Virus record (IMG/VR): IMGVR_UViG_3300008108_000181
Coordinates: 17,197 to 81,196 of that record
From: a virus
Reading direction: 5' to 3' (one strand)
Length of the DNA stretch: 64,000 nt
Shown: positions 7,811 to 53,158 of the stretch, piece after piece
Position numbering within the stretch: position 1 is the first letter of the stretch
Layout of the letters: every line of letters begins with the position of its first letter
Made by a program: the position numbers and the translations under genes
Notes under the pieces: model-generated
What the model saw: the letters and a program-made list of their open reading frames with translations, nothing else
What the model was told of the DNA's origin: nothing
Databases searched by the model: none

Positions 7811-7834
7811 AAAAGGGAGTTTTCACTCCCTTTT
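7811..7834 (-). terminator. Intrinsic terminator after the lipoprotein gene
   Basis: A perfect 10-bp stem, AAAAGGGAGT/ACTCCCTTTT, closed on the minus-strand transcript by a GAAA tetraloop and followed by a T-rich tract. It sits four bases after the lipoprotein stop and isolates the TonB/lipoprotein pair from the baseplate genes. Confidence 0.85.
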
Positions 7835-7837
7835 AAT

Positions 7838-9034
7838 TTAATTACCTTTAGATGGGAACCTAGTCCATCCATTACTCCAAATTGGTTTATCTAATTCAGG
7901 TATTACCACATCTATCTCCTTATTGCTCTTTGAAAGTGCTAGAGTTTTCAATTGGTCATTAGTTAGGATTGTAGTTGCCTTACTGATAAAGTTTAAGGTA
8001 GGATTAAATGTTCCTACTGAATTGTTTTCAAATACTGAAACTCCATCTTTTACAAATCCTGCAGTTTCATTACTTTCCAAACTCAAACCACCTTTCATCC
8101 AACCCCACACAATACTGTTCTTCATTGTGAATTGAGTTGCTCTCCTAAATCTCAAACCTAAATTGTGATTTGCTAATGCAGTAGATACATTAGGTCCAAC
8201 TAAAATCATATTGTAAAGTTTCGGATGTGTGTATGGTTGTGCAGGTGAACCCGTTCCATCGTTATCACATTCAACACCATTTCCAGCATCACCACTATCT
8301 ACGAATTGTGGGTCTCTCTTTGCTACACCATTTGTAATTGTTCCAGTATATCCAAAATCAAAATCAAAATCATCATCTGCGGTTGCGAATGCGTATAGAT
8401 TTCTTGCAGATACTGTTCCACCAAAGAATTCAAATGCATCATCGTTAGCGTAGATAGTTTGAACATTCTCAACGATTGTTCCACTACCAACTCCACCCAA
8501 TGTTAGTGCATTGATTTCTGAGTTTGGAAGTGCAGCAATACCTGCGTATTCAATTCTTACAAAACGAAGAACACCACTATTATCTAAATCGTTTGTTCCT
8601 CCATAAGGTCTACCAATACCACCTTCAATAGTTGGTTCTGATGTTCTATTGGTTTTTGCTCTACCCAATATCACAATACCACCCCAATCTCCAGGTGCTC
8701 TTTCTCCAACTGCTTTACCTGAAGTAAATACGATTGGTTTTGTTGCAGTTCCTTCTGCTACAATTTGTGCTCCTCTTTCAATTACCAATGCACCTTTCTC
8801 ACTTATATCGGATACGATTGTAGTTCCAGGTTGAATAATTAGTTTTGCTCCATCGGTTACATATACATAACCTTTCAATGTCCAAACTTTATCCGCAGTT
8901 AAAGTTGTTGTTGTGTTTATGTTACCGGAAATTGTTGTAGTTGATGGAATGTTAATTGGTCCATCACCTCCACCCAATTCGGTTTCACAACTTAATAATC
9001 CGAATGCTAAAATAGCTACTAATAGTTTTTTCAT
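7838..9034 (-). CDS. Beta-helix outer-membrane lipoprotein, partner of TonB receptor
   Basis: A 398-aa lipoprotein. The signal peptide MKKLLVAILAFGLLSC ends in a lipobox with the acceptor Cys16. The mature part contains GYVYVTDGAKLIIQPGTTI, GALVIERGAQIVAEGTATKPIVFTS and PGDWGGIVILGRAKTN, the signature of a right-handed beta-helix family of Bacteroidota often found beside TonB-dependent receptors and sometimes misnamed multidrug transporter. The start overlaps the receptor stop by four bases, so the two are coupled. The G+C content is visibly higher than in the flanking phage genes. Likely exposed on the outer membrane of the infected cell; ligand unknown. A family member inside a phage baseplate cluster is unexpected. 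Confidence 0.85.
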   Translation of the reverse strand: MKKLLVAILAFGLLSCETELGGGDGPINIPSTTTISGNINTTTTLTADKVWTLKGYVYVTDGAKLIIQPGTTIVSDISEKGALVIERGAQIVAEGTATKPIVFTSGKAVGERAPGDWGGIVILGRAKTNRTSEPTIEGGIGRPYGGTNDLDNSGVLRFVRIEYAGIAALPNSEINALTLGGVGSGTIVENVQTIYANDDAFEFFGGTVSARNLYAFATADDDFDFDFGYTGTITNGVAKRDPQFVDSGDAGNGVECDNDGTGSPAQPYTHPKLYNMILVGPNVSTALANHNLGLRFRRATQFTMKNSIVWGWMKGGLSLESNETAGFVKDGVSVFENNSVGTFNPTLNFISKATTILTNDQLKTLALSKSNKEIDVVIPELDKPIWSNGWTRFPSKGN

Positions 9035-11508
9035 AGTGTTAAATTTAGTGTTAATGAAACTGTTTGTTCGTTGTTTGTTTTAATTAAATCTCTGTTTTGT
9101 AACTTTTGGTAAAAGATTGATGATTGAGCAAATACATCACCTATTGCCAATTTTAATTCTCCCTTTGGAAGTTTGTATAAGAATGTAATATCTAATACAT
9201 CTCTACTATTTTCAAAGATGTCAGGATACCCCTGAAATCCTACTGCTGATATTCTATCTCCAACCCTATTATAGGTTATATTAAGGGTTTCATTCTTTTT
9301 GTGTATATTCACCCCACCGTTTAACACATAGGTTGACTGTCCTTGTAATTGTCTTTTAACACCATTCACTTCAACTTCGGAATTCATTACCGATGTATTT
9401 GCGTATATATCAAACCAACCATTTATCTTTTTTCTTGCTTCCAATTCAACACCATATAGGATAGCTGAATTTGGATTGGTGTAGGTTAGAAGGAGGTTAG
9501 ATGGAACCGAACCATCTGCTACAATTTGTTCTATTGGATTGATAAAGTTTTTACCAAATAGGGAAATGGAAATGTTCTCACCTGTATTCGGATACCATTC
9601 GTATTTAAGGTCAGCATTGTATATATCAGTTTTCTCTAAATTAGAGTTACCCAATAGTTGTGCGTTTCTAACAAAATCATAATACGCAAAATTTGCTACT
9701 TCTCTGAACTCTGGTCTTACTAATGTTTTACTTAATGAAAATCTATACTTTGTTTTTTCTTCGTTATATGAAAGGTTTAGGGATGGTAGTATATCCAAAT
9801 ACTCTCTATCTACATTTACTTTCTGTCCACTAAAATCTGCGGTTTGGACATCAAATAAATTGTACTCACCTCTTAATCCAGTGTTTAGTTTCCACTTACC
9901 AAATTCGGTATCATACATTGTGTATAACGAACCCAAATCAAAATCTGCCGTGTATCTATCAGTATTGTTTGTTATCTCATCTAACATATCATTTGATACA
10001 TAACGAAATACTCTAGCATTAAATCCTCGCATCTTTTTTAGGTAACCACCACCTACTTTAATCTTACCAAACTCTTTGTTGATATTACCATTCAAAGAGT
10101 TCTCATCCATCACACTCCAAAAACGATATGTATCTCTCCACGCAGTTTGATATGGTTCATCTACCCCCAATGATTTTGTAATTGGATTAACTCTATAATC
10201 GGGTTGTTCTCTGAAGGTGTATGTGTATCCTAAATTGAAATCCCAAGTCTTAACCTTACCATCTAATTGAGAACTGATTACAACATTGTTAATATGATTT
10301 GATGCCGTAGATAAAACATTCTGCACGTTATCAAAGTTATCACCAGTACGAGTTAGGTATGTATCATCGGTTTGGTAGTTCACTAATGTTTTCCAACTAT
10401 ATCTATTCTCACCCAAATAAGTCAAATTGAATAAACCATTTGTTGAAAATCTTTTTGTGAATAGAACATCTTTGTAATCATAAGCCAATTCGGTTGATGA
10501 TTGGTAATCCTTTCTATCAATGTTATTTATTGTAAATGAGTTCCTTACGGTAGAACTGAATAAGGAGTTCCATTTTCCGTTTACATATCCGAATGATACA
10601 CCACCATTTAAGTTCTGAATAGATTGGATTGTTTCAGTTGATGGATTACCAAATAGTTTAGTGTAAGCTCTCTTATCACCATTACCACTAATTCGGTATT
10701 TGTATGTGGATGGGAATGTGGAGGGGAAATCGGTAGCTTGAACTAACTTAAAATCTCTAAAAGTTGAAACCGAACCCCAACCACTTCCCGATGATATATT
10801 AAAAAAGTTATCAGATACTTCTTTAGTTGTTATCTGAACCAATCCACCTGCCCAATCACCTGGTAGATTTGCCGATGCTGATTTAGCAACTATTATGTTA
10901 TCAATTAGTGATGTGGGGATTATATCAAATGAGAATGCTCTCCTATCGGGTTCGGTTGATGGTAGTGGGGTTTTGTTTAGTAGTGCCGAATTATATCTAT
11001 CTGCTAATCCTCTTACTAATACAAACTTATCGTTTTGTATTGTTACACCACTTACTCTTTTAAGAGCATCTCCAACATTTCTATCGGGTGTCTTTTTGAT
11101 AAATTCTATGGATAATCCATCTGATACAACATTACTATTTCGTATTGATTTAACAATAGTTATATCATTTACTTTTTGGGATACACCTTGAACAATAACT
11201 TCTGATAAATCAGTAGCATCATCTGGGAATATAATATCGAATTCAGTATCGGTATCGAATACCACTTCGTTTGTGTATTCTTTGTATCCAACAAATGAAG
11301 ATTTTATTTGATACTTTCCGTTTTCTAATTGAATTAAATACTTACCATCGGTATCGGAAAGTGTTGTAAAAATACCACCCTTATCATTTATAAAAGAAAT
11401 ATGAGAAAAGTAAAGTGTTTCGGATTTTGATTTTGTAGTTCCCTTTATTGTTACTTGCGAAAACAATAAATTGGGTAGTAATAAAAGTATTAGTAAAAAC
11501 CTTTTCAT
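9031..11508 (-). CDS. TonB-dependent outer-membrane receptor
   Basis: An 825-aa receptor. The signal peptide MKRFLLILLLLPNLLFSQ has the usual Bacteroidota end. Residues ~20-95 form a carboxypeptidase-regulatory-like beta-sandwich (YLIQLENGKYQIKSSFVGYKEY). The plug follows at ~105-235 with NVGDALKRVSGVTIQNDKFVLVRG, LADRYNSALLNKTPLPST and PGDWAGGLVQITTK. The remainder is a 22-strand barrel ending in an aromatic-poor VSLTLNLTL strand. Length and domains look complete. Such receptors import siderophores, metals, vitamins or glycans with TonB energy, and many phages use them as receptors. Here the gene sits between the phage lysozyme and gp25 genes. It may supply nutrients to the infected cell or interfere with superinfection; neither is shown. 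Confidence 0.92.
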   Translation of the reverse strand: MKRFLLILLLLPNLLFSQVTIKGTTKSKSETLYFSHISFINDKGGIFTTLSDTDGKYLIQLENGKYQIKSSFVGYKEYTNEVVFDTDTEFDIIFPDDATDLSEVIVQGVSQKVNDITIVKSIRNSNVVSDGLSIEFIKKTPDRNVGDALKRVSGVTIQNDKFVLVRGLADRYNSALLNKTPLPSTEPDRRAFSFDIIPTSLIDNIIVAKSASANLPGDWAGGLVQITTKEVSDNFFNISSGSGWGSVSTFRDFKLVQATDFPSTFPSTYKYRISGNGDKRAYTKLFGNPSTETIQSIQNLNGGVSFGYVNGKWNSLFSSTVRNSFTINNIDRKDYQSSTELAYDYKDVLFTKRFSTNGLFNLTYLGENRYSWKTLVNYQTDDTYLTRTGDNFDNVQNVLSTASNHINNVVISSQLDGKVKTWDFNLGYTYTFREQPDYRVNPITKSLGVDEPYQTAWRDTYRFWSVMDENSLNGNINKEFGKIKVGGGYLKKMRGFNARVFRYVSNDMLDEITNNTDRYTADFDLGSLYTMYDTEFGKWKLNTGLRGEYNLFDVQTADFSGQKVNVDREYLDILPSLNLSYNEEKTKYRFSLSKTLVRPEFREVANFAYYDFVRNAQLLGNSNLEKTDIYNADLKYEWYPNTGENISISLFGKNFINPIEQIVADGSVPSNLLLTYTNPNSAILYGVELEARKKINGWFDIYANTSVMNSEVEVNGVKRQLQGQSTYVLNGGVNIHKKNETLNITYNRVGDRISAVGFQGYPDIFENSRDVLDITFLYKLPKGELKLAIGDVFAQSSIFYQKLQNRDLIKTNNEQTVSLTLNLTL

Positions 11509-11605
11509 AGTTATAAAGTTAGTTCTCCAATAACTATTATGGGGTTTTTTTAAAATTTTAACTTTTTGATTAACAAATTATTATCAAATTGTTTATAATA
11601 ATGTA
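11509..11605. other. Intergenic gap upstream of the TonB receptor gene
   Basis: A 97-base AT-rich gap between the muramidase stop and the receptor start. It contains a coding-strand TAATTTG that loosely resembles a Bacteroidota -7 box, but no matching -33 box and no copy of the late motif. No small ORF or hairpin was identified. The receptor promoter is therefore unresolved. Confidence 0.4.
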
Positions 11606-12592
11606 TTATTTGTATCTAAAAAGTGCAGCTTCTTCTCTTCTTCTTCTAATTAATCCTGTATAAACTTTACCATCTTCTGCTCCTTTACTTGGACCATTTT
11701 CAATACCTACTGCAGCTTCCTCAAACTTACCAGCTTTTATATTATCGATTATATCTGGATAATAGTAGAAACTTCCACAATTATACGCAAAAGATACTAA
11801 TCCTGCTTTTTGTGTTTTAGTTAACGCATCAAAAGTTTCTTTTGGCATCTGATAAATCCTTCCTTGCGGATTTTTAGCATTACCTACTACTTTATAATAA
11901 AATGTATTTCTAACTTGATATTGTAAAACTAACATAGCATCTTCTTTGGTAGTTGTATCACCATATTGTACTGTTCTAGTTGTCCAAGGATTTGCTTTTA
12001 CTAATAGCATCGATGTACCATAGCCTAATCGTGGATTTCCTTGGTCATTTCTAGCAGTATCACGAAATGATTCTTTCCTAGCAATATATTGAGCTGCAAT
12101 AACATCCCATGTTGCACCAAAATCTATTTTGGTTAAACTTGGTTCAGTACCTGCTGGGAAATTAGATGTACCAGTGTTTGTTGGAGTATTGGATTCTTGT
12201 TTAACTTCAGTTGATTTTACTTTAACCAAATCAGTTGCTGTAGAATTAAAACCGTTTCCACCGAGTCCTGCACTTGTACTACCATCGGTTTCCAATCGAG
12301 TTTCGTTCCATTCTTTATTCACAATCGGGTCAGTTTCTAATTCAACTTGAACCGAAACAATAGTATTATCATATTGTGGCTCAGGTGGTGTTTGCATTGG
12401 AACTTCAGGGCCGCCAGCCCCACTTGGTGGTATAGTATAACCTGTCCAAGTTTTAAATCCCGGCAATGGTAGTGGTGACGGCATTATAGTACCAATGGTG
12501 ATATAAATACCACCTACTGTTTGTAAATGTAATTGCATTTGAGTAATTAACTGGTTTAAAAACACTTCACTATTATCAGTTGGTCTTGCCAT
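11606..12592 (-). CDS. Baseplate-associated muramidase, GH24 (T4 lysozyme-type)
   Basis: A 328-aa protein. Residues ~1-150 are a Pro/Thr/Gly-rich structural part. Residues ~158-328 are a GH24 muramidase: the catalytic Glu174 lies in ARKESFRD, followed by LGYGTS (189-194), KAGLVSFAYNCGSFYY and the C-terminal LIRRRREEAALFR typical of the T4 lysozyme family. The reaction is cleavage of the MurNAc-GlcNAc bond. The linked N-terminal part and its position behind the spike gene suggest a tail-borne enzyme used in entry rather than a free endolysin, although it could serve in lysis as well. The next gene upstream ends seven bases away. Confidence 0.85.
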   Translation of the reverse strand: MARPTDNSEVFLNQLITQMQLHLQTVGGIYITIGTIMPSPLPLPGFKTWTGYTIPPSGAGGPEVPMQTPPEPQYDNTIVSVQVELETDPIVNKEWNETRLETDGSTSAGLGGNGFNSTATDLVKVKSTEVKQESNTPTNTGTSNFPAGTEPSLTKIDFGATWDVIAAQYIARKESFRDTARNDQGNPRLGYGTSMLLVKANPWTTRTVQYGDTTTKEDAMLVLQYQVRNTFYYKVVGNAKNPQGRIYQMPKETFDALTKTQKAGLVSFAYNCGSFYYYPDIIDNIKAGKFEEAAVGIENGPSKGAEDGKVYTGLIRRRREEAALFRYK

Positions 12593-16373: not shown

Positions 16374-16793
16374 TTACTTTTTTATATTGACCCTTTTTTT
16401 GTTGGGATTTAATGGTTTGTTTTGCCATTCTTTTTCATCAATACCATCCATTTTACCATCTCCATCTTCATCGACTTCGATACCAATTCTTGGTTCTTGT
16501 TTTACAATTTCAGGTTCAACAATTTCAACTTCTTTTACGATTGGTTTGATTGGTGTAGAGGGCTCGGGTGAATCATCACCCATCGTATTAGAAAGTGAAA
16601 CTCCATCTTCTTCATCCATTTTTTGAACCAACATCTTATCCTTATCTGTATCACTAAACCAATAATCTATAATCTTACCATACGAACCAATGAAGGCACC
16701 CAACATTAATAATAGTAGTTCTTTCCATTCTTGACCTACTATTGTTTCAGTATGATTTAATAAATCCTTAAATCCAGAACTTTGATTTTCCAT
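16374..16793 (-). CDS. Small single-pass membrane protein with EF-hand-like loop
   Basis: A 139-aa protein with one membrane segment at about residues 21-40 (WKELLLLMLGAFIGSYGKII), a Pro/Glu/Val-rich linker, and a C-terminal calcium-loop-like sequence DEDGDGKMDGID (D-x-D-x-D-G spacing). It stands as a single transcription unit between two terminators with its own late-type box, about 90 bases upstream of the hub cluster. Timing and size would fit a holin or spanin-like lysis protein, but it has only one membrane segment and no other lysis hallmark, so this is a guess. Confidence 0.6.
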   Translation of the reverse strand: MENQSSGFKDLLNHTETIVGQEWKELLLLMLGAFIGSYGKIIDYWFSDTDKDKMLVQKMDEEDGVSLSNTMGDDSPEPSTPIKPIVKEVEIVEPEIVKQEPRIGIEVDEDGDGKMDGIDEKEWQNKPLNPNKKRVNIKK

Positions 16794-16891: not shown

Positions 16892-18610
16892 TTATATTAT
16901 CTTTTTTCGAACTATATAATTGTGTAATACTAAAGTATCCATTTCACAATTCAAAAATGTTTTAACTGCAGTTTCTGGGTCTAACACCATAGTTTGATCT
17001 TTTAAGTTAAATGAAGTGTTGAGGACAATTGGATAACCATTATCTATTTCCAATTGATTTAACAATCTATACATTCGTGATTGTTGTCTATTATTCAATG
17101 TTTGAATTCTTGCAGAACCATCAATGTGAGTAATTGCTGGTAAATTCTTTCTATGTTCTTCTTTCACTTTCACTACTTGATTCATATATGGAACCAAATG
17201 TTTATAATCAAAGTACTTTAATCGTTCTTCTTCTTTTATAATTGGTGCAAATGGTCTAAACCCTTCTCTTTTTTTAATTACACGATTTACTCGTGCTTTC
17301 ATTTGTGGGTCTCTTGGATTAGCCAAAATAGAACGATTCCCAAGGGCTCGAGAACCAAATTCCATTCTCCCCTCGAACCAACCAATGACATTTCCATCAG
17401 TAATTTCTCTACTGATGATTGGAATAATTTCTGAATGATTTTTATATTCATACCAAACTTCATTTTCGTGTTTATCTAATACTTCTTTTATTTTTTCATT
17501 TGTATACGAAGGCCCCAAATAAGGATTTGTATTTACTACTCTATTTTTGTTATTTAATTGATTATACCAATAATAAAGAGCAGAACCAATAGCAGAACCA
17601 GCATCAGATGGTGCAGGTGGAATCCACAATCCCTTGAATGGTGTCATATCGGTAATCTTCCCATTTGCAGTTCCATTGTATGCACACCCACCACTCAGAC
17701 AAACATTATTAGCAGGTCTTAATGCAATTGCACGATTTAATAATCTAAAAAAATAATGTTCGTACTCGTGTTGTAATGTTGCAGCTAAATCTTTATGGTC
17801 TTGTGTAATTTCCTCATCGGGTAATCTATTAGGGAATCCAAACAACTCTCCCAATTTCTCGTTAAACATAGATTTATCATCCCAATCATAGGTAAAATAA
17901 TCCATATTGATTTTATATCCACCATCATCGGTAGATGAAATCAAATGAGAAAATTTAGATAAATATTTTTTGTAATCACCATACGGTGCAAGACCCATTA
18001 CTTTGTATTCACCTTCATTTGGTTTGAATCCAAGAAATGCGGTAAATACTGAGTATAACATTCCTAAAGAATGTGGGAACTCTACACTTTGAAGTTTAAT
18101 TATTCTATTCTCTTCACCATAAGCAATTACGGTAGTTTCCCACTCACCTACCCCATCTACCGAAACAATCATTGCTCTCTCGTAGGGTGATGTATAGAAT
18201 GAATATGCTAAATGTGAGAGGTGGTGTTCGGTGTGAAACAATTCTGAATTAGGAAATAATTTCTTAATCTTTTTTTCTACCTTTTTGTATTCTTGTTTAT
18301 TATTGTAGATAATTTTTTGTCTATTAATTTCATTAACGAACCCACCACGTTTTGTAGATTTTTCAATTCTATCAATTTTCAATTCGGGTAGTTCATAAAA
18401 AGTAACTACATTAATATCGTTAGGAGTAATTCCTTCGTTTTCTAATAACCAAGTTATAGTATTAATTGGAAATGAAGAATCATGCTTTATACCAGTAAAT
18501 CTTTCCTCTTCAACTGCACCTACAACCTCACCATTTTTAATGAGAGCAGCAGCAGAATCATGATAACCAGAACTTATTCCTAAAATATAAAAATTATTCA
18601 CTTTCATCAA
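16892..18610 (-). CDS. Carbamoyltransferase, NodU/CmcH/TobZ family
   Basis: A 572-aa protein. The N-terminal YrdC/Kae1-like half starts ILGISSGYHDSAAALIKNGEVVGAVEEERFTG and contains HTEHHLSHLAYSFYTSP, providing metal-binding histidines, and later LSGGCAYNGTANGKI. The C-terminal domain has GWFEGRMEFGSRALGNRSILA. These enzymes transfer a carbamoyl group from carbamoyl phosphate via carbamoyl-AMP to a hydroxyl, usually on a sugar or small molecule. Phage copies are known, including in T4-like marine phages, with substrates mostly unknown. The start overlaps the stop of the sigma-factor gene by 17 bases. It could modify a virion glycan or DNA base; no evidence decides. Confidence 0.92.
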   Translation of the reverse strand: MMKVNNFYILGISSGYHDSAAALIKNGEVVGAVEEERFTGIKHDSSFPINTITWLLENEGITPNDINVVTFYELPELKIDRIEKSTKRGGFVNEINRQKIIYNNKQEYKKVEKKIKKLFPNSELFHTEHHLSHLAYSFYTSPYERAMIVSVDGVGEWETTVIAYGEENRIIKLQSVEFPHSLGMLYSVFTAFLGFKPNEGEYKVMGLAPYGDYKKYLSKFSHLISSTDDGGYKINMDYFTYDWDDKSMFNEKLGELFGFPNRLPDEEITQDHKDLAATLQHEYEHYFFRLLNRAIALRPANNVCLSGGCAYNGTANGKITDMTPFKGLWIPPAPSDAGSAIGSALYYWYNQLNNKNRVVNTNPYLGPSYTNEKIKEVLDKHENEVWYEYKNHSEIIPIISREITDGNVIGWFEGRMEFGSRALGNRSILANPRDPQMKARVNRVIKKREGFRPFAPIIKEEERLKYFDYKHLVPYMNQVVKVKEEHRKNLPAITHIDGSARIQTLNNRQQSRMYRLLNQLEIDNGYPIVLNTSFNLKDQTMVLDPETAVKTFLNCEMDTLVLHNYIVRKKII

Positions 18611-23941: not shown

Positions 23942-25057
23942 TTAATTACTTAAAGGTGCTTTGATTTTATCATGTGATTGATAACCTATTAACTCAAAAC
24001 AATCAGGTCTATAACTCATAATCTTTTGATCGAAAGTTTTTTCACCCAATCTTTCTTTTACCAATTGGTGTTGATACCAATTTCTTTCAGTTATTTGCAC
24101 CTTTGGTAATTTAAACGGTTCTCTACTGATTTGTTCTTTCGCTTGTTCAATGTGGTTTGAATATAGATGCACATCTCCCAAATTACCAATCAATTCATCT
24201 GGTACCATATTTACTTCCTTTGCAATAATCTCCAATAACAAACCATAGGAAGCTATGTTAAATGGTAATCCTAAAAATGTATCTACTGACCTCTGGTTCC
24301 ACATTAAAGAGATTGCTCGTTTAGGAACATTAGCATCATCACATACTTTATGCATTTCTACATCAGTATCTATTGTTTCATAACCACCTTCTTTAAGAGA
24401 ATCGTATAATCTTGTACTTCCTTTAGAACCTAACTCTGTTCTTTCTTTAGCACTCAATTCTCTTGTATAAACTTGGAATCCATAATGACAAGGAGGTAAA
24501 ACCATTTCATCCAATTGACCCACATTCCAAGCAGATACCATTAATCTTCTACTATCGGGATTTGTTTTGAGTTCGTTGATTAGATTTGTGATTTGGTCTA
24601 TTCCAATGAAGTATTCGTTACTAATTGAGTCGTGTTTTCTTTCACCCCAACTTCTCCATTGCTTACCATAGATTGGTCCTAAATCACCCCACTTCTTTGC
24701 AAACTCATTATCGGTTTTAATATTATGGATGAATTGTTCTTTAGTGAATTGGTAACCAGAGTCAAGTGAAGTCTTGGAAGCGTAGTTCTTATAAGCATCA
24801 CCATCCCAAATGTGACAATCGTAATCCAATAAAAACTTAATGTTTGTACTACCTCTCAAAAACCATAGGAGTTCTGCCACCATAACATTCCACGCCATTT
24901 TCTTTGTGGTTAATAATGGGAATCCTTGTGACATTCGGTGACGGATTTGTCTACCAAATACTGAAATAGTTCCAGTACCTGTCCTATCCTTTTTCTCCAC
25001 ACCGTTATCAAGAATATCTTGTAGTAAGTCTTGGTATTTTGTATCTAATCTATTCAT
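23942..25057 (-). CDS. thyA: Thymidylate synthase ThyA
   Basis: A 371-aa enzyme that methylates dUMP to dTMP using methylene-tetrahydrofolate. The N-terminus KKDRTGTGTISVFGRQIRH and ELLWFLRGSTN, the nucleophile Cys190 in LPPCHYGFQVY preceded by DSRRLMVSAWNVGQLDEM, and SVDTFLGLPFNIASYGLL are all present. It is longer than the usual ~264-aa enzyme because of insertions around residues 90-160 and a Lys/Gly-rich one at ~200-245 just after the catalytic loop. Together with the dCMP deaminase at 44.1 kb and the deoxynucleotidase at 31.9 kb it supports dTTP supply for an AT-rich genome. Confidence 0.95.
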   Translation of the reverse strand: MNRLDTKYQDLLQDILDNGVEKKDRTGTGTISVFGRQIRHRMSQGFPLLTTKKMAWNVMVAELLWFLRGSTNIKFLLDYDCHIWDGDAYKNYASKTSLDSGYQFTKEQFIHNIKTDNEFAKKWGDLGPIYGKQWRSWGERKHDSISNEYFIGIDQITNLINELKTNPDSRRLMVSAWNVGQLDEMVLPPCHYGFQVYTRELSAKERTELGSKGSTRLYDSLKEGGYETIDTDVEMHKVCDDANVPKRAISLMWNQRSVDTFLGLPFNIASYGLLLEIIAKEVNMVPDELIGNLGDVHLYSNHIEQAKEQISREPFKLPKVQITERNWYQHQLVKERLGEKTFDQKIMSYRPDCFELIGYQSHDKIKAPLSN

Positions 25058-50279: not shown

Positions 50280-50603
50280 TTACCATTTACCAGCTGGACA
50301 TTGAGATTGACGAGAAAGAGTTTTAGCTGCAATGTTACACCCACACCCACTTACCATTTGATTCGTTTTTTGATTAAGAATCATTTTGTTAGGGTCACAA
50401 GTATTATCGGTTCGTATAGAACATGCATTGCAATGAAGTAATCTTGATTCAGCTAACTTACGAGTTTCTTCATCTAATAAACCAAAATTAGATTTAACTA
50501 GATTTCCCCACCCATCGAGTATTTCACTTAATTTTCCCATAATGCTATTTAATTGTGCTCCTCCTCTTGGGCTCGAACCAAGGACCCCATGATTAACAGT
50601 CAT
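50280..50603 (-). CDS. Small zinc-ribbon-like cysteine protein, second copy
   Basis: A 107-aa reading frame; the first residues overlap the tRNA-Asn, so the true start is probably the ATG MGKLSEILDGWGNLV at about 50540. LLHCNACSIRTDNTCDPNK, MVSGCGCNIAAK and SQCPAGKW give the C-x2-C / C / C-x-C / C pattern shared with the protein at 39210-39491. Likely a zinc-binding phage protein of unknown role. Confidence 0.65.
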   Translation of the reverse strand: MTVNHGVLGSSPRGGAQLNSIMGKLSEILDGWGNLVKSNFGLLDEETRKLAESRLLHCNACSIRTDNTCDPNKMILNQKTNQMVSGCGCNIAAKTLSRQSQCPAGKW

Positions 50604-50631
50604 GTGCTCTAACCAGCTGAGCTAAGGAGGA
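50558..50631 (-). tRNA. tRNA-Asn(GTT)
   Basis: 74 nt. Acceptor TCCTCCT/AGGAGGA, D arm AGCTCAGCTGGTTAGAGC, anticodon loop CTGTTAA in CATGA/TCATG stem, T arm with GGTTCGAGCC. 3' CCA is not encoded. Confidence 0.95.
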
Positions 50632-50644
50632 ATGTTTGCTGGTA

Positions 50645-50717
50645 AGGATGGATTCGAACCACCACGAGGACTTTAGCCAAAGGACATTGCATGCATTGTG
50701 GTCAACCCATTATCCTT
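50645..50717 (-). tRNA. Aberrant tRNA-like element (anticodon unresolved)
   Basis: 73 nt. It has a T arm GGTTCGAATCC and termini that pair (AAGGAT/ATCCTT), but the D arm and anticodon arm do not fold into standard shape: the best central hairpin is CTTT-GGCT-AAAG and the loop has no U33. It could be a degenerate tRNA or a tRNA-like RNA. Confidence 0.4.
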
Positions 50718-50792
50718 CGTTTATCAGTTACTCCCCACCCCCGAGCTCACTTCCAGTTCCCAATCGAGTTCTTTCGTCATAGAATATCATTG

Positions 50793-50877
50793 CAGAGGAG
50801 GAGGGATTCGAACCCCCGTTACCTTTCAGTAAAACGGTTTTCAAGACCGCCGCGTTCAACCGCTCTGCCACTCCTCT
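50793..50877 (-). tRNA. tRNA-Ser(TGA)
   Basis: 85 nt class II tRNA. Acceptor AGAGGAG/CTCCTCT, discriminator G, anticodon loop CTTGAAA, a long variable arm, T arm GGGGGTTCGAATCCCTC. Confidence 0.95.
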
Positions 50878-50880
50878 AAA

Positions 50881-50972
50881 TAGGAATGAGTATTTGCAAC
50901 TACTCAATCCCGAACATGACTTACTCTGGGACGCTGTTCTCATGGGTAGCGTAGTAAGTACTGTTGACTAAT
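50881..50972. other. Spacer between HNH gene and tRNA-Ser
   Basis: A 92-base stretch without ORF. It contains no recognisable T arm, promoter or hairpin. It may be the processed spacer of the tRNA transcript. Confidence 0.3.
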
Positions 50973-51374
50973 TTATCTATATGTTCTACTTGATTTACGA
51001 TTACCAATATTTTTGTAGGTATTGGTAAGTGAATGACAATTAGGACACACTACTCTTAAATTATTTATATTGTTATTATATGCATCTCCATCAATATGGT
51101 CTATTTCTAATGGACTTTTACCGGTATATTTATTGACTTCATCCCAACCACATTTAGAACACTTGTGATTAGATTTATCAATTAAATATCTATTCATCCA
51201 AACTGGTACTGAGTTGCCACCTTTTTGAATAATATTATTACCACTTAACCATTCATTCAGTTTAAGTTTTGTTTGATACTCTCCCTGACATTTATTACCA
51301 CAATAAACATTATTATTTGGAATTGCTTTTTCACAATTTAAACATTTTTTTTCTAATTTTTCTCTATTTCTCAT
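50973..51374 (-). CDS. HNH homing-type endonuclease in the tRNA cluster
   Basis: A 133-aa HNH nuclease. N-terminal zinc knuckle CLNCEKAIPNNNVYCGNKCQ; a second pair in HKCSKCGWDE; the HNH core PLEIDHIDGDAYNNNINNL with catalytic His, and CPNCHSLTNTY at the end. It stands between tRNA-Ser and tRNA-Thr, a common place for phage homing endonucleases, and has its own late-type TATATTTATATT box 17 bases upstream, so it is probably transcribed independently. Confidence 0.9.
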   Translation of the reverse strand: MRNREKLEKKCLNCEKAIPNNNVYCGNKCQGEYQTKLKLNEWLSGNNIIQKGGNSVPVWMNRYLIDKSNHKCSKCGWDEVNKYTGKSPLEIDHIDGDAYNNNINNLRVVCPNCHSLTNTYKNIGNRKSSRTYR

Positions 51375-51391
51375 TGGTATACCTATTCTTT

Positions 51392-51403
51392 AATATAAAT
51401 ATA
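51392..51403 (-). promoter_or_regulatory. Late-type promoter box TATATTTATATT
   Basis: Coding-strand TATATTTATATT, 17 bases upstream of the HNH ATG at 51374. It differs from consensus only in the last base. Confidence 0.55.
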
Positions 51404-51429
51404 GGTTTACCAAATAAAACATCAAAAAG

Positions 51430-51501
51430 AGCTCCCACTCGGAATCGAACCAAGTTATCATGATTACAAGTCATGTGCATCGCCAGCAATGCTTTAGGAG
51501 C
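51430..51501 (-). tRNA. tRNA-Thr(TGT)
   Basis: 72 nt. Acceptor GCTCCTA/TGGGAGC, anticodon loop CTTGTAA in CATGA/TCATG, T arm CTTGGTTCGATTCCGAG. CCA not encoded. Confidence 0.93.
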
Positions 51502-51527
51502 TTTAACTATCGTTCTATTTAATTGAT

Positions 51528-51935
51528 TTACCCTTTCAGTAAATCTTTTTGTTTAATTTTATTTTCTAATTTATCTAAACGAGAATCTAATAAAGATAAA
51601 ACATCTTTTTCATTTTCATCTATATTAGATTGTACCTCTCGTATTTCTTCATCAATTCTTCTATGCAAAATATCTTTTGTATCACCAATAAAATCTAATG
51701 CATCTTTTAATTGAAGTTGTAAATCTCTTACTTCATTATCAATCCTACGATGTACATCATCTGATACATCCTCAACTCTACGATGTAGATTACTAACCTC
51801 ATCGTTTGAACTTCTTTCTAAGAATTGAACTTCTTCTTTCAACTCTTTTACTAAAGTACCTACCCTAACAATAACCACAACCCCTAATACTAAAAGAACT
51901 GTGACCACTCCTAAAACAAAATATACTATTTCCAT
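51528..51935 (-). CDS. Membrane-anchored coiled-coil protein with LHRRID repeats
   Basis: A 135-aa protein. One N-terminal membrane segment (residues ~4-24, VYFVLGVVTVLLVLGVVVIV), then a long coiled coil with repeats VHRRIDNEV, LHRRIDEEI and LHRRVEDV. The heptad phase is continuous. It lies inside the tRNA cluster between tRNA-Thr and tRNA-Glu. Role unknown; such membrane-bound coiled coils may form a scaffold in the infected cell. Confidence 0.65.
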   Translation of the reverse strand: MEIVYFVLGVVTVLLVLGVVVIVRVGTLVKELKEEVQFLERSSNDEVSNLHRRVEDVSDDVHRRIDNEVRDLQLQLKDALDFIGDTKDILHRRIDEEIREVQSNIDENEKDVLSLLDSRLDKLENKIKQKDLLKG

Positions 51936-51984
51936 AATTTTTTCTTTTTTTTAAGTTATACAATATGTGAAAGAACGATAGTTG

Positions 51985-52056
51985 TACTCGATACGGGAAT
52001 CGAACCCGTGTTTTATCCGTGAAAGGGATACGTCCTAACCCCTAGACGAACCGAGC
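51985..52056 (-). tRNA. tRNA-Glu(TTC)
   Basis: 72 nt. Acceptor GCTCGGT/ATCGAGT with two G-T pairs, D arm TCGTCTAGGGGTTAGGA, anticodon loop CTTTCAC, T arm ACGGGTTCGATTCCCGT. Confidence 0.93.
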
Positions 52057-52076
52057 AGGGTAATCATAATAATGAG

Positions 52077-52159
52077 TATCAGGAGCGGGAATCGAACCCG
52101 CACAGCCAATGGCCAACAGATTTTAAGTCTGTCGTGTCTACCTATTCCACCACCCCGAC
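52077..52159 (-). tRNA. tRNA-Leu(TAA)
   Basis: 83 nt class II tRNA. Acceptor GTCGGGG/TCCTGAT with G-T pairs, anticodon loop CTTAAAA in ACAGA/TCTGT, variable arm GGCCATTGGC, T arm GCGGGTTCGATTCCCGC. Two promoters lie just upstream. Confidence 0.93.
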
Positions 52160-52180
52160 ATTTCTTCGTATAAGAACTTG

Positions 52181-52192
52181 TATATAAATATA
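52181..52192 (-). promoter_or_regulatory. Late-type promoter box upstream of tRNA-Leu
   Basis: A perfect TATATTTATATA on the coding strand, 21 bases before the tRNA-Leu 5' end. As no protein start follows, this copy supports a promoter rather than a translation role for the motif. Confidence 0.62.
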
Positions 52193-52199
52193 TACAATA

Positions 52200-52231
52200 C
52201 AAATATACGAAATTTATTTTACAATTCCAAA
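52200..52231 (-). promoter_or_regulatory. Host-type promoter upstream of tRNA-Leu
   Basis: Coding-strand TTTG (52228-52231), spacer of 20 containing GAATTGTAAAA, TATATTTG (52200-52207). It lies immediately upstream of the late-type box, so the tRNA cluster can be made both early and late. Confidence 0.75.
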
Positions 52232-52308
52232 CTTGTAGTTTAGTTAGAAAGTCAGTTGGATAATAAACATATCCAACCGAACTAACTAAACGAACACGTC
52301 TGGGGGAG

Positions 52309-52382
52309 TGGGCCCACTTGGAATCGAACCAAGCACCTACTGATTATGAGTCAGTTGCTCTAACCGAATGAGCTATAGGCCC
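52309..52382 (-). tRNA. tRNA-Met(CAT) (or tRNA-Ile2)
   Basis: 74 nt. Acceptor GGGCCTA/TGGGCCC, D arm TAGCTCATTCGGTTAGAGC, anticodon loop CTCATAA, T arm CTTGGTTCGATTCCAAG. Base modification of the CAT anticodon could make it Ile; the first base pair is G-C, so it is not a typical initiator. Confidence 0.92.
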
Positions 52383-52442
52383 TTAATTTTATATTTATCC
52401 AAAACTACTTTTTTTAAAGAGATTTGGAAGATTATAAATCGT

Positions 52443-52515
52443 GGGTGATTACTGGGATTCGAACCCAAACTAAAAGAACCACAAACTTTCGTGCTACCTT
52501 TACACCATAATCACC
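52443..52515 (-). tRNA. tRNA-His(GTG)
   Basis: 73 nt. Acceptor GGTGATT/AATCACC, discriminator C as in His tRNAs, D arm TGGTGTAAAGGTAGCA, anticodon loop TTGTGGT, T arm TTGGGTTCGAATCCCAG. The anticodon stem has one T-T mismatch. Confidence 0.88.
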
Positions 52516-52517
52516 AT

Positions 52518-52916
52518 TTAGTATTTACTCTTTACTTTTACTACATTCCAATCCATTTCACTATCCTTATTCAATCTAAAGTAATAATGACCACCAGTAG
52601 AATACGCTCTGAACTTTAGCATCCAAAAGATTGTATTTTCTAATTCACCGATTATAGATTCATTACCACTCCATCCTATGGTATGTAATTCAAGCATACC
52701 ATCTTCTTCTTTATATCCATAATCATAATACCACAATTCTTTAATGTAGTTTAGGAGTTGGGTATAATCAGTAGTATTGAAGAACTTACCATATACTAAC
52801 TCACCATCAATCTTTTCACTACCCCAATTACGAATATACTTCAGTGCCTCATCAGTTGGGTAACCATCCTCATCGAACAAATAGAATGGGTATATATAAT
52901 CTAATTTGGTTTCCAT
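52518..52916 (-). CDS. Phage conserved hypothetical protein, 132 aa
   Basis: A 132-aa protein. ELVYGKFFNTTDYTQLLNYIKELWYYDYGY and ELHTIGWSGNESIIGEL, NTIFWMLKFRAYSTGGHYYFRL have the feel of a compact soluble domain with many aromatics; similar proteins occur in phages with unknown function. It sits between tRNA-Gln and tRNA-His inside the tRNA cluster and ends three bases before tRNA-His. Confidence 0.62.
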   Translation of the reverse strand: METKLDYIYPFYLFDEDGYPTDEALKYIRNWGSEKIDGELVYGKFFNTTDYTQLLNYIKELWYYDYGYKEEDGMLELHTIGWSGNESIIGELENTIFWMLKFRAYSTGGHYYFRLNKDSEMDWNVVKVKSKY

Positions 52917-52931
52917 AATTTTATTTTAATG

Positions 52932-53002
52932 TTATCCTACAAGGATTCGAACCTCGAACAACTGAACCAAAATCAGTAGTGTTACCGTTACACCATAGGA
53001 TA
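52932..53002 (-). tRNA. tRNA-Gln(TTG)
   Basis: 71 nt. Acceptor TATCCTA/TAGGATA, D arm TGGTGTAACGGTAACA, anticodon loop TTTTGGT in CTGA/TCAG stem, T arm CGAGGTTCGAATCCTTG. Confidence 0.93.
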
Positions 53003-53067
53003 ATGTTTAGATTTGTAAAACTCATCCCTAACGGGGTAAAGAAACTCCATCTAATAAGTTTTTTGCG

Positions 53068-53158
53068 TAGTCAGGACAGGATTCGAACCTGTACTCCCCA
53101 TTACAGGGAGCGTGATACAGCCACCAATGTAGCTGTGGCACCCAATTGCCACCTGACT
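53068..53158 (-). tRNA. Aberrant class II tRNA-like gene (possibly Tyr GTA)
   Basis: 91 nt. Acceptor AGTCAGG/CCTGACT is perfect and the T arm ACAGGTTCGAATCCTGT is canonical. Between them lie three hairpins: GTGGCA/TGCCAC, CAGCTAC/GTGGCTG with an ATTG loop, and CTCC-CTGTAAT-GGGG. If the last is the anticodon arm it reads GTA (Tyr), but then an extra 20-nt hairpin sits in the D region and no variable arm remains. It has its own host-type promoter (53211-53242), so it is probably expressed. Confidence 0.55.

What the first reader, a model, noticed from the sequence alone, without database searches (positions are those of the whole stretch)
7811..11508. Phage-borne TonB-dependent receptor plus beta-helix lipoprotein inserted in the baseplate cluster
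A complete 825-aa receptor with signal peptide, plug and barrel, and its coupled lipoprotein lie between the tail muramidase and gp25 genes, with a private terminator. The pair is typical of Bacteroidota chromosomes, and some lines of it have clearly higher G+C (about 40% against 20-30%). TonB receptors are classic phage receptors and nutrient importers. A phage that makes one may feed the infected cell, present a decoy, or exclude rivals.
Basis: partly seen in the sequence, partly recalled or inferred. Interest (0 to 1): 0.82.

Follow-up and report, generated by a model that had tools for sequence, protein, structure and literature searches.

The report
Phage-borne phosphate-starvation nutrient importer cassette
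Many unrelated large phages of Bacteroidota carry a swappable gene cassette encoding an outer-membrane nutrient importer of the kind these bacteria switch on when starved of phosphate, with what looks like the bacterium's own phosphate-starvation switch in front of it, so an infected, phosphate-starved cell can probably be made to keep feeding the virus.

Summary
Receptor (9031-11508) and lipoprotein (7838-9034) are intact, overlap by ATGA, and are followed by a terminator (7811-7834). They form a mobile cassette: over 110 IMG/VR contigs encode the receptor, 61 non-redundant loci show 47 gene contexts, and two close relatives of this phage have an empty site. dN/dS is 0.03-0.22.

Chromosomal homologues sit beside phosphate genes (PiT permease, PstS, porin O/P, PhoBR-like pairs). 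A published F. johnsoniae pair with the same domains is induced 2^8-2^10 by Pi depletion.

Chromosomal copies have 11-bp TTAACA repeats upstream, also found before PstS, OprP and PhoB genes: a Pho box. A model trained only on chromosomes ranks the phage receptor's upstream region first in 41 of 61 loci (about 3 expected), in the same 11-bp phase to a -7 element as in host promoters.

Most likely this is an auxiliary metabolic ("moron") cassette, switched on by host PhoB, importing phosphorus compounds into P-starved infected cells: an outer-membrane counterpart of cyanophage pstS. Three Aquirufa-genus genomes carry the phage-type pair, shown for one to replace the native pair inside the host's Pho locus. 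PhoB binding, expression and substrate are untested.

The parts
11568..11595 (-). Putative Pho box: three 11-bp direct repeats, TAAACAATTTG ATAATAATTTG TTAATC
   Evidence: Matrix trained on chromosomal receptors; rank 1 of 36 gene-upstream regions of this locus, third best site in the whole record; 11-bp spacing specific to receptor upstreams
11528..11536 (-). -7 promoter-like element TAGTTATTG, 31 nt after the Pho box
   Evidence: TAnTTATTG in 33/61 phage receptors against 18/1266 controls; phased 20/31/42 nt to the box, same phase as host TAnnTTTG
9031..11508 (-). TonB-dependent receptor, 825 aa: signal peptide, CarbopepD_reg_2, plug, barrel
   Evidence: Pfam, AF2 barrel and Foldseek match to TonB-dependent transporters, dN/dS 0.05-0.22
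7838..9034 (-). Surface-type lipoprotein, 398 aa, beta-helix, translationally coupled to the receptor (ATGA overlap 9031-9034)
   Evidence: Lipobox and overlap, AF2 and Foldseek, dN/dS 0.03-0.14
7811..7834 (-). Intrinsic terminator of the cassette
   Evidence: the same position in 39 of 48 phage copies
11606..12592 (-). Flank: phage lysozyme/endolysin-type protein (not part of the cassette)
   Evidence: PF00959, PHROG endolysin; borders the empty site in L337 and L334
7114..7749 (-). Flank: 211-aa phage gene next to gp25 (not part of the cassette)
   Evidence: Borders the empty site in L337 and L334

Best explanation
A mobile phage 'moron' cassette (Pho-box promoter, TonB-dependent receptor, surface lipoprotein, terminator) that imports a phosphorus source into infected, phosphate-starved Bacteroidota cells. 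Shown from sequence: an intact co-translated pair under purifying selection; a self-contained promoter-like region and terminator; insertion in many different phage contexts with an empty site in sister phages; homology to chromosomal pairs in Pho neighbourhoods; the same phased 11-bp repeats as in host Pho promoters. Inferred: host PhoB, active in a P-starved cell, binds the repeats and switches the cassette on; the lipoprotein sits on the cell surface over the barrel and captures or presents a P-containing substrate (phosphate ester or other organic P); the host TonB-ExbB-ExbD complex drives import; host phosphatases and the PiT/Pst permeases finish uptake. This would keep P flowing for phage DNA while host gene expression is being shut down.
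For: Chromosomal relatives beside PHO4, PstS, porin O/P, phosphatase-superfamily and PhoBR-like genes; PHO4 within 12 kb in 5 of 31 genomes, about 0.2 expected. Published: same-domain TBDT Fjoh_0545 and lipoprotein Fjoh_0546 induced 2^8-2^10 by Pi depletion; Caulobacter ElpS with its TonB receptor neighbour made on Pi starvation. Pho-box matrix trained on chromosomes only: receptor upstream ranks first in 41 of 61 phage loci; 11-bp spacing best in 42/61 against 38/346 controls; motif also before PstS, OprP, PhoB and PiT genes; phase to the -7 element shared by phages and hosts. Cassette: terminators 39/48 against 68/579 and 47 contexts in 61 loci, empty sites. Selection: dN/dS 0.03-0.22. The phage-type pair replaces the native pair inside the Pho locus of an Aquirufa genome. 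Precedent: cyanophage pstS under host PhoBR.
Against: No expression or binding data. About a third of phage loci lack a clear Pho box and one set seems to use the upstream gene's promoter. The window's own box is only the third best site in its record. PMC10976474 warns that Pho-box prediction in phages is unreliable. The substrate is unknown, and the lipoprotein family could instead aid phosphatases (ElpS). Phage loci are related, so motif counts are not independent. Fjoh and Caulobacter sequences could not be aligned directly here.
Confidence: 0.72

Rival explanations
1. Decoy or superinfection exclusion: the phage puts its own receptor variant on the surface so that competing phages are blocked or misdirected.
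For: TonB-dependent receptors are common phage receptors (general knowledge); the pair sits in the late tail operon of this phage and varies in sequence among phages.
Against: A decoy does not need the lipoprotein partner (always next to the receptor where sequence allows), a conserved plug (mean identity 0.83), or a Pho-box promoter. The promoter and the chromosomal context point to phosphate.
Confidence: 0.1
2. An importer under phosphate control but for something else (glycans, metals, a siderophore-like compound), or a lipoprotein that mainly activates or anchors phosphatases.
For: The lipoprotein fold resembles polysaccharide-acting beta-helices (also noted in PMC8115612). ElpS overexpression raised alkaline phosphatase activity without being a phosphatase itself.
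Against: PiT, PstS and phosphatase-superfamily neighbours; published induction was reported under Pi depletion only.
Confidence: 0.14
3. Host contamination, misassembly or a dead captured gene.
For: Bacterial-type genes in a phage tail operon; IMG/VR records are metagenomic fragments.
Against: Purifying selection; over 110 contigs with one phage-type clade on a long stem; the same junctions in several metagenomes; terminase genes in 12 of 25 records.
Confidence: 0.02

Closest known systems
Fjoh_0545 (TonB transporter) and Fjoh_0546 (lipoprotein FII) of the F. johnsoniae phoBR cluster (PMC8115612)
   Same: Same three receptor Pfam domains; adjacent lipoprotein without Pfam family, pectin-lyase-like fold; phosphate-starvation gene cluster.
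   Different: Chromosomal. The phage version is a separate clade, in a mobile cassette. Direct alignment not done: sequences not held.
ElpS (CC_0170) and its TonB receptor CC_0171 of Caulobacter crescentus (PMC2996285)
   Same: Lipoprotein next to a TonB receptor, made on phosphate starvation; our receptor also matches TIGR01782 TonB-Xanth-Caul at E 1.8e-52, below its cut-off.
   Different: Another phylum; ElpS is released by a type II secretion-dependent step. Homology is via PMC8115612's statement, not tested here.
Cyanophage pstS/phoA under host PhoBR (PMC10976474 and works it cites)
   Same: Works alike: a phage phosphate-acquisition gene under a host Pho box.
   Different: PstS is a periplasmic binding protein; here an outer-membrane receptor with lipoprotein, in phages of another host phylum, and no PstS found.
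Megaphage 'SusC' TonB receptor of Mar_Mega_1 and LR745206 (PMC9723777)
   Same: Phage-borne TonB receptor; LR745206's is paired with a similar lipoprotein (28% and 40% identity).
   Different: Far outside the phage clade, so probably a separate acquisition; no Pho box seen before the receptor; carbohydrate uptake was suggested.
SusCD/PusCD and XusAB receptor-lipoprotein systems of Bacteroidota
   Same: Barrel plus surface lipoprotein architecture (XusA among Foldseek hits).
   Different: The partner here is a beta-helix with no SusD Pfam domain.

Membership tests
TonB-dependent receptor | Plug domain and outer-membrane barrel | tested here: met
   PF07715 and PF14905 above cut-off; Foldseek best hits FecA, FoxA, BtuB
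TonB-dependent receptor | TonB box | tested here: inconclusive
   Candidate LSEVIVQG near residue 101, kept as xEVxVxS in variants lacking the N-terminal domain (read by eye)
TonB-dependent receptor | Active transport of a ligand | not testable with these tools
   Needs uptake assays
Pho-type (FII/ElpS-like) surface lipoprotein | Lipobox and beta-helix fold, next to a TonB receptor | tested here: met
   adjacency
Pho-type (FII/ElpS-like) surface lipoprotein | Direct sequence homology with Fjoh_0546 or CC_0170 | not tested
   Those sequences were not held under a name; arrangement matches PMC8115612
Pho regulon member | Pho box upstream | tested here: met
   (family-wide; the window's own site is modest alone)
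Pho regulon member | PhoB binding and low-Pi induction | not testable with these tools
   Needs band-shift and expression data
Phage moron / auxiliary metabolic cassette | Own promoter and terminator, present in some and absent in sister phages | tested here: met
   (promoter by sequence only)
SusCD-type system | SusD-like lipoprotein partner (PF07980, PF14322) | tested here: not met
   No Pfam match for the lipoprotein
Cyanophage-type PstS gene | PstS substrate-binding protein encoded by the phage | tested here: not met
   PF12849 in 0 of 25 cassette-bearing records, which may be fragments

The most novel reading that the evidence does not exclude
Phages maintain, trade and spread their own version of a host Pho-regulon outer-membrane importer as a self-contained cassette that keeps the host Pho-box geometry, so any PhoB-bearing host can switch it on; and the phage-type version has entered bacterial chromosomes, replacing the native pair in place within the host's Pho locus (3 of 38 genomes of the Aquirufa genus carry it; in the one compared closely, flanks are about 76-95% identical to a relative with the native pair).
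Probability: 0.5. Interest if true: 0.9.

Novelty: new variant of a known kind. Interest (0 to 1): 0.85.

Why it matters
Phage control of host phosphorus uptake is known mainly from cyanophages that carry the periplasmic protein PstS. Here an outer-membrane, TonB-driven importer appears in many large phages of another phylum, in a portable cassette with what looks like the host's own starvation switch. If it works, phages reshape phosphorus uptake in Bacteroidota, and phage and host trade importer versions. It also gives a testable putative Pho-box consensus (TTAACATTnnC repeats, phased to TAnnTTTG) for Bacteroidota, for which the literature search found no description. It makes phage-borne TonB receptors, so far noted only in passing, experimentally approachable.

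Tried and rejected
PHROGs: no family for either protein. PDB sequence search: no meaningful relative. DNA search of named phages: none; protein search: only distant metagenomic records. PhoX as an independent Pho marker: present in only 2 of 27 genomes, uninformative. Most PF12849 hits carry no box; PF12849 is broader than PstS, so only the loci with PstS or OprP-PstS context were taken as support, which is a choice made after seeing the data. PF03237 gave no terminase in the window's own record. A phage PstS: none. AF2 of the receptor: plug poorly predicted, used only for the barrel. Considered and set aside: host contamination, SusCD, high G+C as proof of recent import. The colocation expectation (about 0.2) is a hand estimate from copy number and genome size, and the 31 genomes were chosen by similarity, not at random.

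Full report
WHAT IS THERE. The window is bases 17197-81196 of an 81,196-base linear IMG/VR record. In the minus-strand tail operon, between a lysozyme gene (11606-12592) and a 211-aa gene followed by gp25 and a baseplate wedge gene, lie an 825-aa TonB-dependent receptor (9031-11508) and a 398-aa lipoprotein (7838-9034). The receptor has CarbopepD_reg_2, Plug and OMP_b-brl_3 domains. The lipoprotein has a lipobox, no Pfam domain, and models as a beta-helix like pectate lyases and polygalacturonases (TM-scores are low, so the fold class only). They overlap by ATGA. A 10-bp-stem terminator follows at 7811-7834. G+C is only slightly raised.

A PHAGE FAMILY. Pattern scans of IMG/VR found 118 contigs encoding the receptor and 138 encoding the lipoprotein; these are lower bounds set by the search patterns. 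Nearly every receptor locus with enough sequence downstream also has the lipoprotein. Contigs reach 326 kb. Of 25 records tested, 12 have a Terminase_6N gene, in two size classes (526-542 and 587-590 aa), which suggests at least two phage lineages. Among 61 non-redundant loci there are 47 different flanking-gene combinations. The pair seems to move between phages: in the region compared L003 shares only the pair and one other related gene with the window, yet the pair differs by dS of about 0.25. dN/dS is 0.05-0.22 (receptor) and 0.03-0.14 (lipoprotein), similar to structural genes.

A CASSETTE. Two contigs of the same phage group, L334 and L337, have the lysozyme gene followed directly by the 7114 homologue (74-80% identical) and no pair: the empty site. 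At least ten other contigs, several from other metagenomes, have the lipoprotein or the pair at that place. The homology of L337 with the window ends just past the lysozyme stop codon and resumes past the terminator (read directly). A terminator follows the lipoprotein in 39 of 48 phage loci, against 68 of 579 other genes.

HOST RELATIVES AND PHOSPHATE. In the phylum of the closest chromosomal match, 193 of 297 genomes encode a lipoprotein relative. In 33 fetched loci receptor and lipoprotein are nearly always adjacent. Neighbours include PHO4/PiT permeases, a phosphatase-superfamily protein, porin O/P, a PstS above its NCBIfam cut-off and PhoB/PhoR-like pairs (the PhoB models are the best matches for the regulators but stay below their equivalog cut-offs). 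PHO4 is within 12 kb of the pair in 5 of 31 genomes at about one copy per genome; about 0.2 would be expected (hand estimate, and two of the five genomes share a genus). Independent published work: F. johnsoniae Fjoh_0545 (same three Pfam domains) and Fjoh_0546 in the phoBR cluster are induced about 2^8 and 2^10 by Pi depletion (PMC8115612); Caulobacter makes the lipoprotein ElpS (CC_0170, next to TonB receptor CC_0171) on Pi starvation (PMC2996285).

THE PROMOTER. Upstream of chromosomal receptors stand tandem 11-bp repeats TTAACATTnnC. A position matrix built only from 30 chromosomal upstream regions scores at least 15 in 81% of receptors (its training set) and in 2.9% of 420 other genes; top other genes include PstS, PiT and PhoB-like genes, and sites precede further PstS or OprP-PstS genes. 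This identifies it as a Pho box by association; it resembles the cyanobacterial consensus PyTTAAPyPyT/A (quoted in PMC10976474). Applied to phages, which were not used in training, the receptor's upstream region ranks first among all gene-upstream regions in 41 of 61 loci, with about 3 expected. With spacing as the only variable, 11 bp is best in 42 of 61 phage receptors and in 38 of 346 control intergenic regions (about one tenth, as chance gives); Mann-Whitney p is about 1e-20. Downstream lies TAnTTATTG (33 of 61 against 18 of 1266 controls), at 20, 31 or 42 nt from the box in 26 of 27 cases. In host promoters the distance to TAnnTTTG is -2, 9, 20, 31 or 42 in all 14 loci that have that element near the box (counted by eye). 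The 11-bp phase is therefore the same in phage and host. Phage loci are related by descent, so these counts are not independent events, but phage copies at 63-68% identity keep the geometry. In the window: box 11568-11595, element 11528-11536, gap 31. Taken alone the window's box is only the third best in its record. About a third of phage loci lack a clear box, and one set (L042, L043, L044 and others) appears to rely on the upstream gene's transcription.

PHAGE AND HOST EXCHANGE. In the receptor tree all clade phage copies plus one chromosomal copy (Aquirufa, L147) form a single clade on a long stem (support 100); the Aquirufa copy is nested inside it (93, below the starred level). In that GTDB genus 3 of 38 genomes carry the phage-type lipoprotein (72-73%) while 29 carry the native type (44-49%). 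The locus is the same: flanking genes 76-95% identical (mostly 87-95%) and in the same order, but receptor 34% and lipoprotein 48% identical to the native pair, which has been replaced in place. Direction of transfer is not settled. The exchange at the host's own Pho locus argues that the two versions do the same job.

MECHANISM. Most likely: in a P-starved cell active PhoB turns on the cassette; the lipoprotein captures a P compound at the surface; the receptor imports it with the host's TonB energy; host phosphatases and inner-membrane permeases do the rest. Shown: gene content, coupling, selection, mobility, promoter geometry. Inferred: PhoB binding, timing in infection, substrate, benefit to the phage. 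Cyanophages give the precedent with pstS under host PhoBR, with that paper's warning that predicted Pho boxes in phages need binding data.

NOVELTY. A phage-borne phosphate-acquisition gene under host PhoB is a known kind; the outer-membrane receptor-lipoprotein form, the cassette, the host phylum and the in-place host replacement are new as far as the searches of open-access papers went. The nearest prior report is a megaphage 'SusC' with a carbohydrate reading; here its LR745206 homologue proves to have the same kind of lipoprotein partner.

Noticed in passing
L147 (8.3-12.1 kb) compared with L176; L322, L323: Phage-type receptor-lipoprotein pair sits in the host Pho locus of Aquirufa in place of the native pair; neighbouring genes stay highly similar and collinear with a relative that has the native pair.
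   Followed up: partly
Chromosomal loci L147-L178, L181-L208: A putative Bacteroidota Pho box: tandem TTAACATTnnC repeats with 11-bp period, phased to a TAnnTTTG element, upstream of Pho-type receptors, PstS, OprP and PhoB-like genes.
   Followed up: partly
L211 (LR745206 megaphage, 72610-84853): A 634-kb megaphage carries a distant, apparently independently acquired receptor-lipoprotein pair, earlier reported only as a SusC-like receptor.
   Followed up: partly
L024, L030-L036, L042-L044, L054-L067 and others: Many phage receptors lack the N-terminal CarbopepD_reg domain (about 750 instead of 825 aa) yet keep plug and barrel.
   Followed up: no
window 16374-16793: A 139-aa gene of unknown function whose relatives recur 1-5 kb upstream of the cassette in many otherwise different phages.
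   Followed up: no
window 16892-18610: A carbamoyltransferase (PHROG 1601, Nol-like) of 572 aa in the structural region; possible surface or DNA modification role.
   Followed up: no
window 23942-25057: A thymidylate synthase whose third-position G+C is also raised (0.27) over its neighbours.
   Followed up: no
window 50557-53158: Cluster of nine tRNA-like genes, one with an unusual 4-base anticodon call (attg) at 53067-53158.
   Followed up: no
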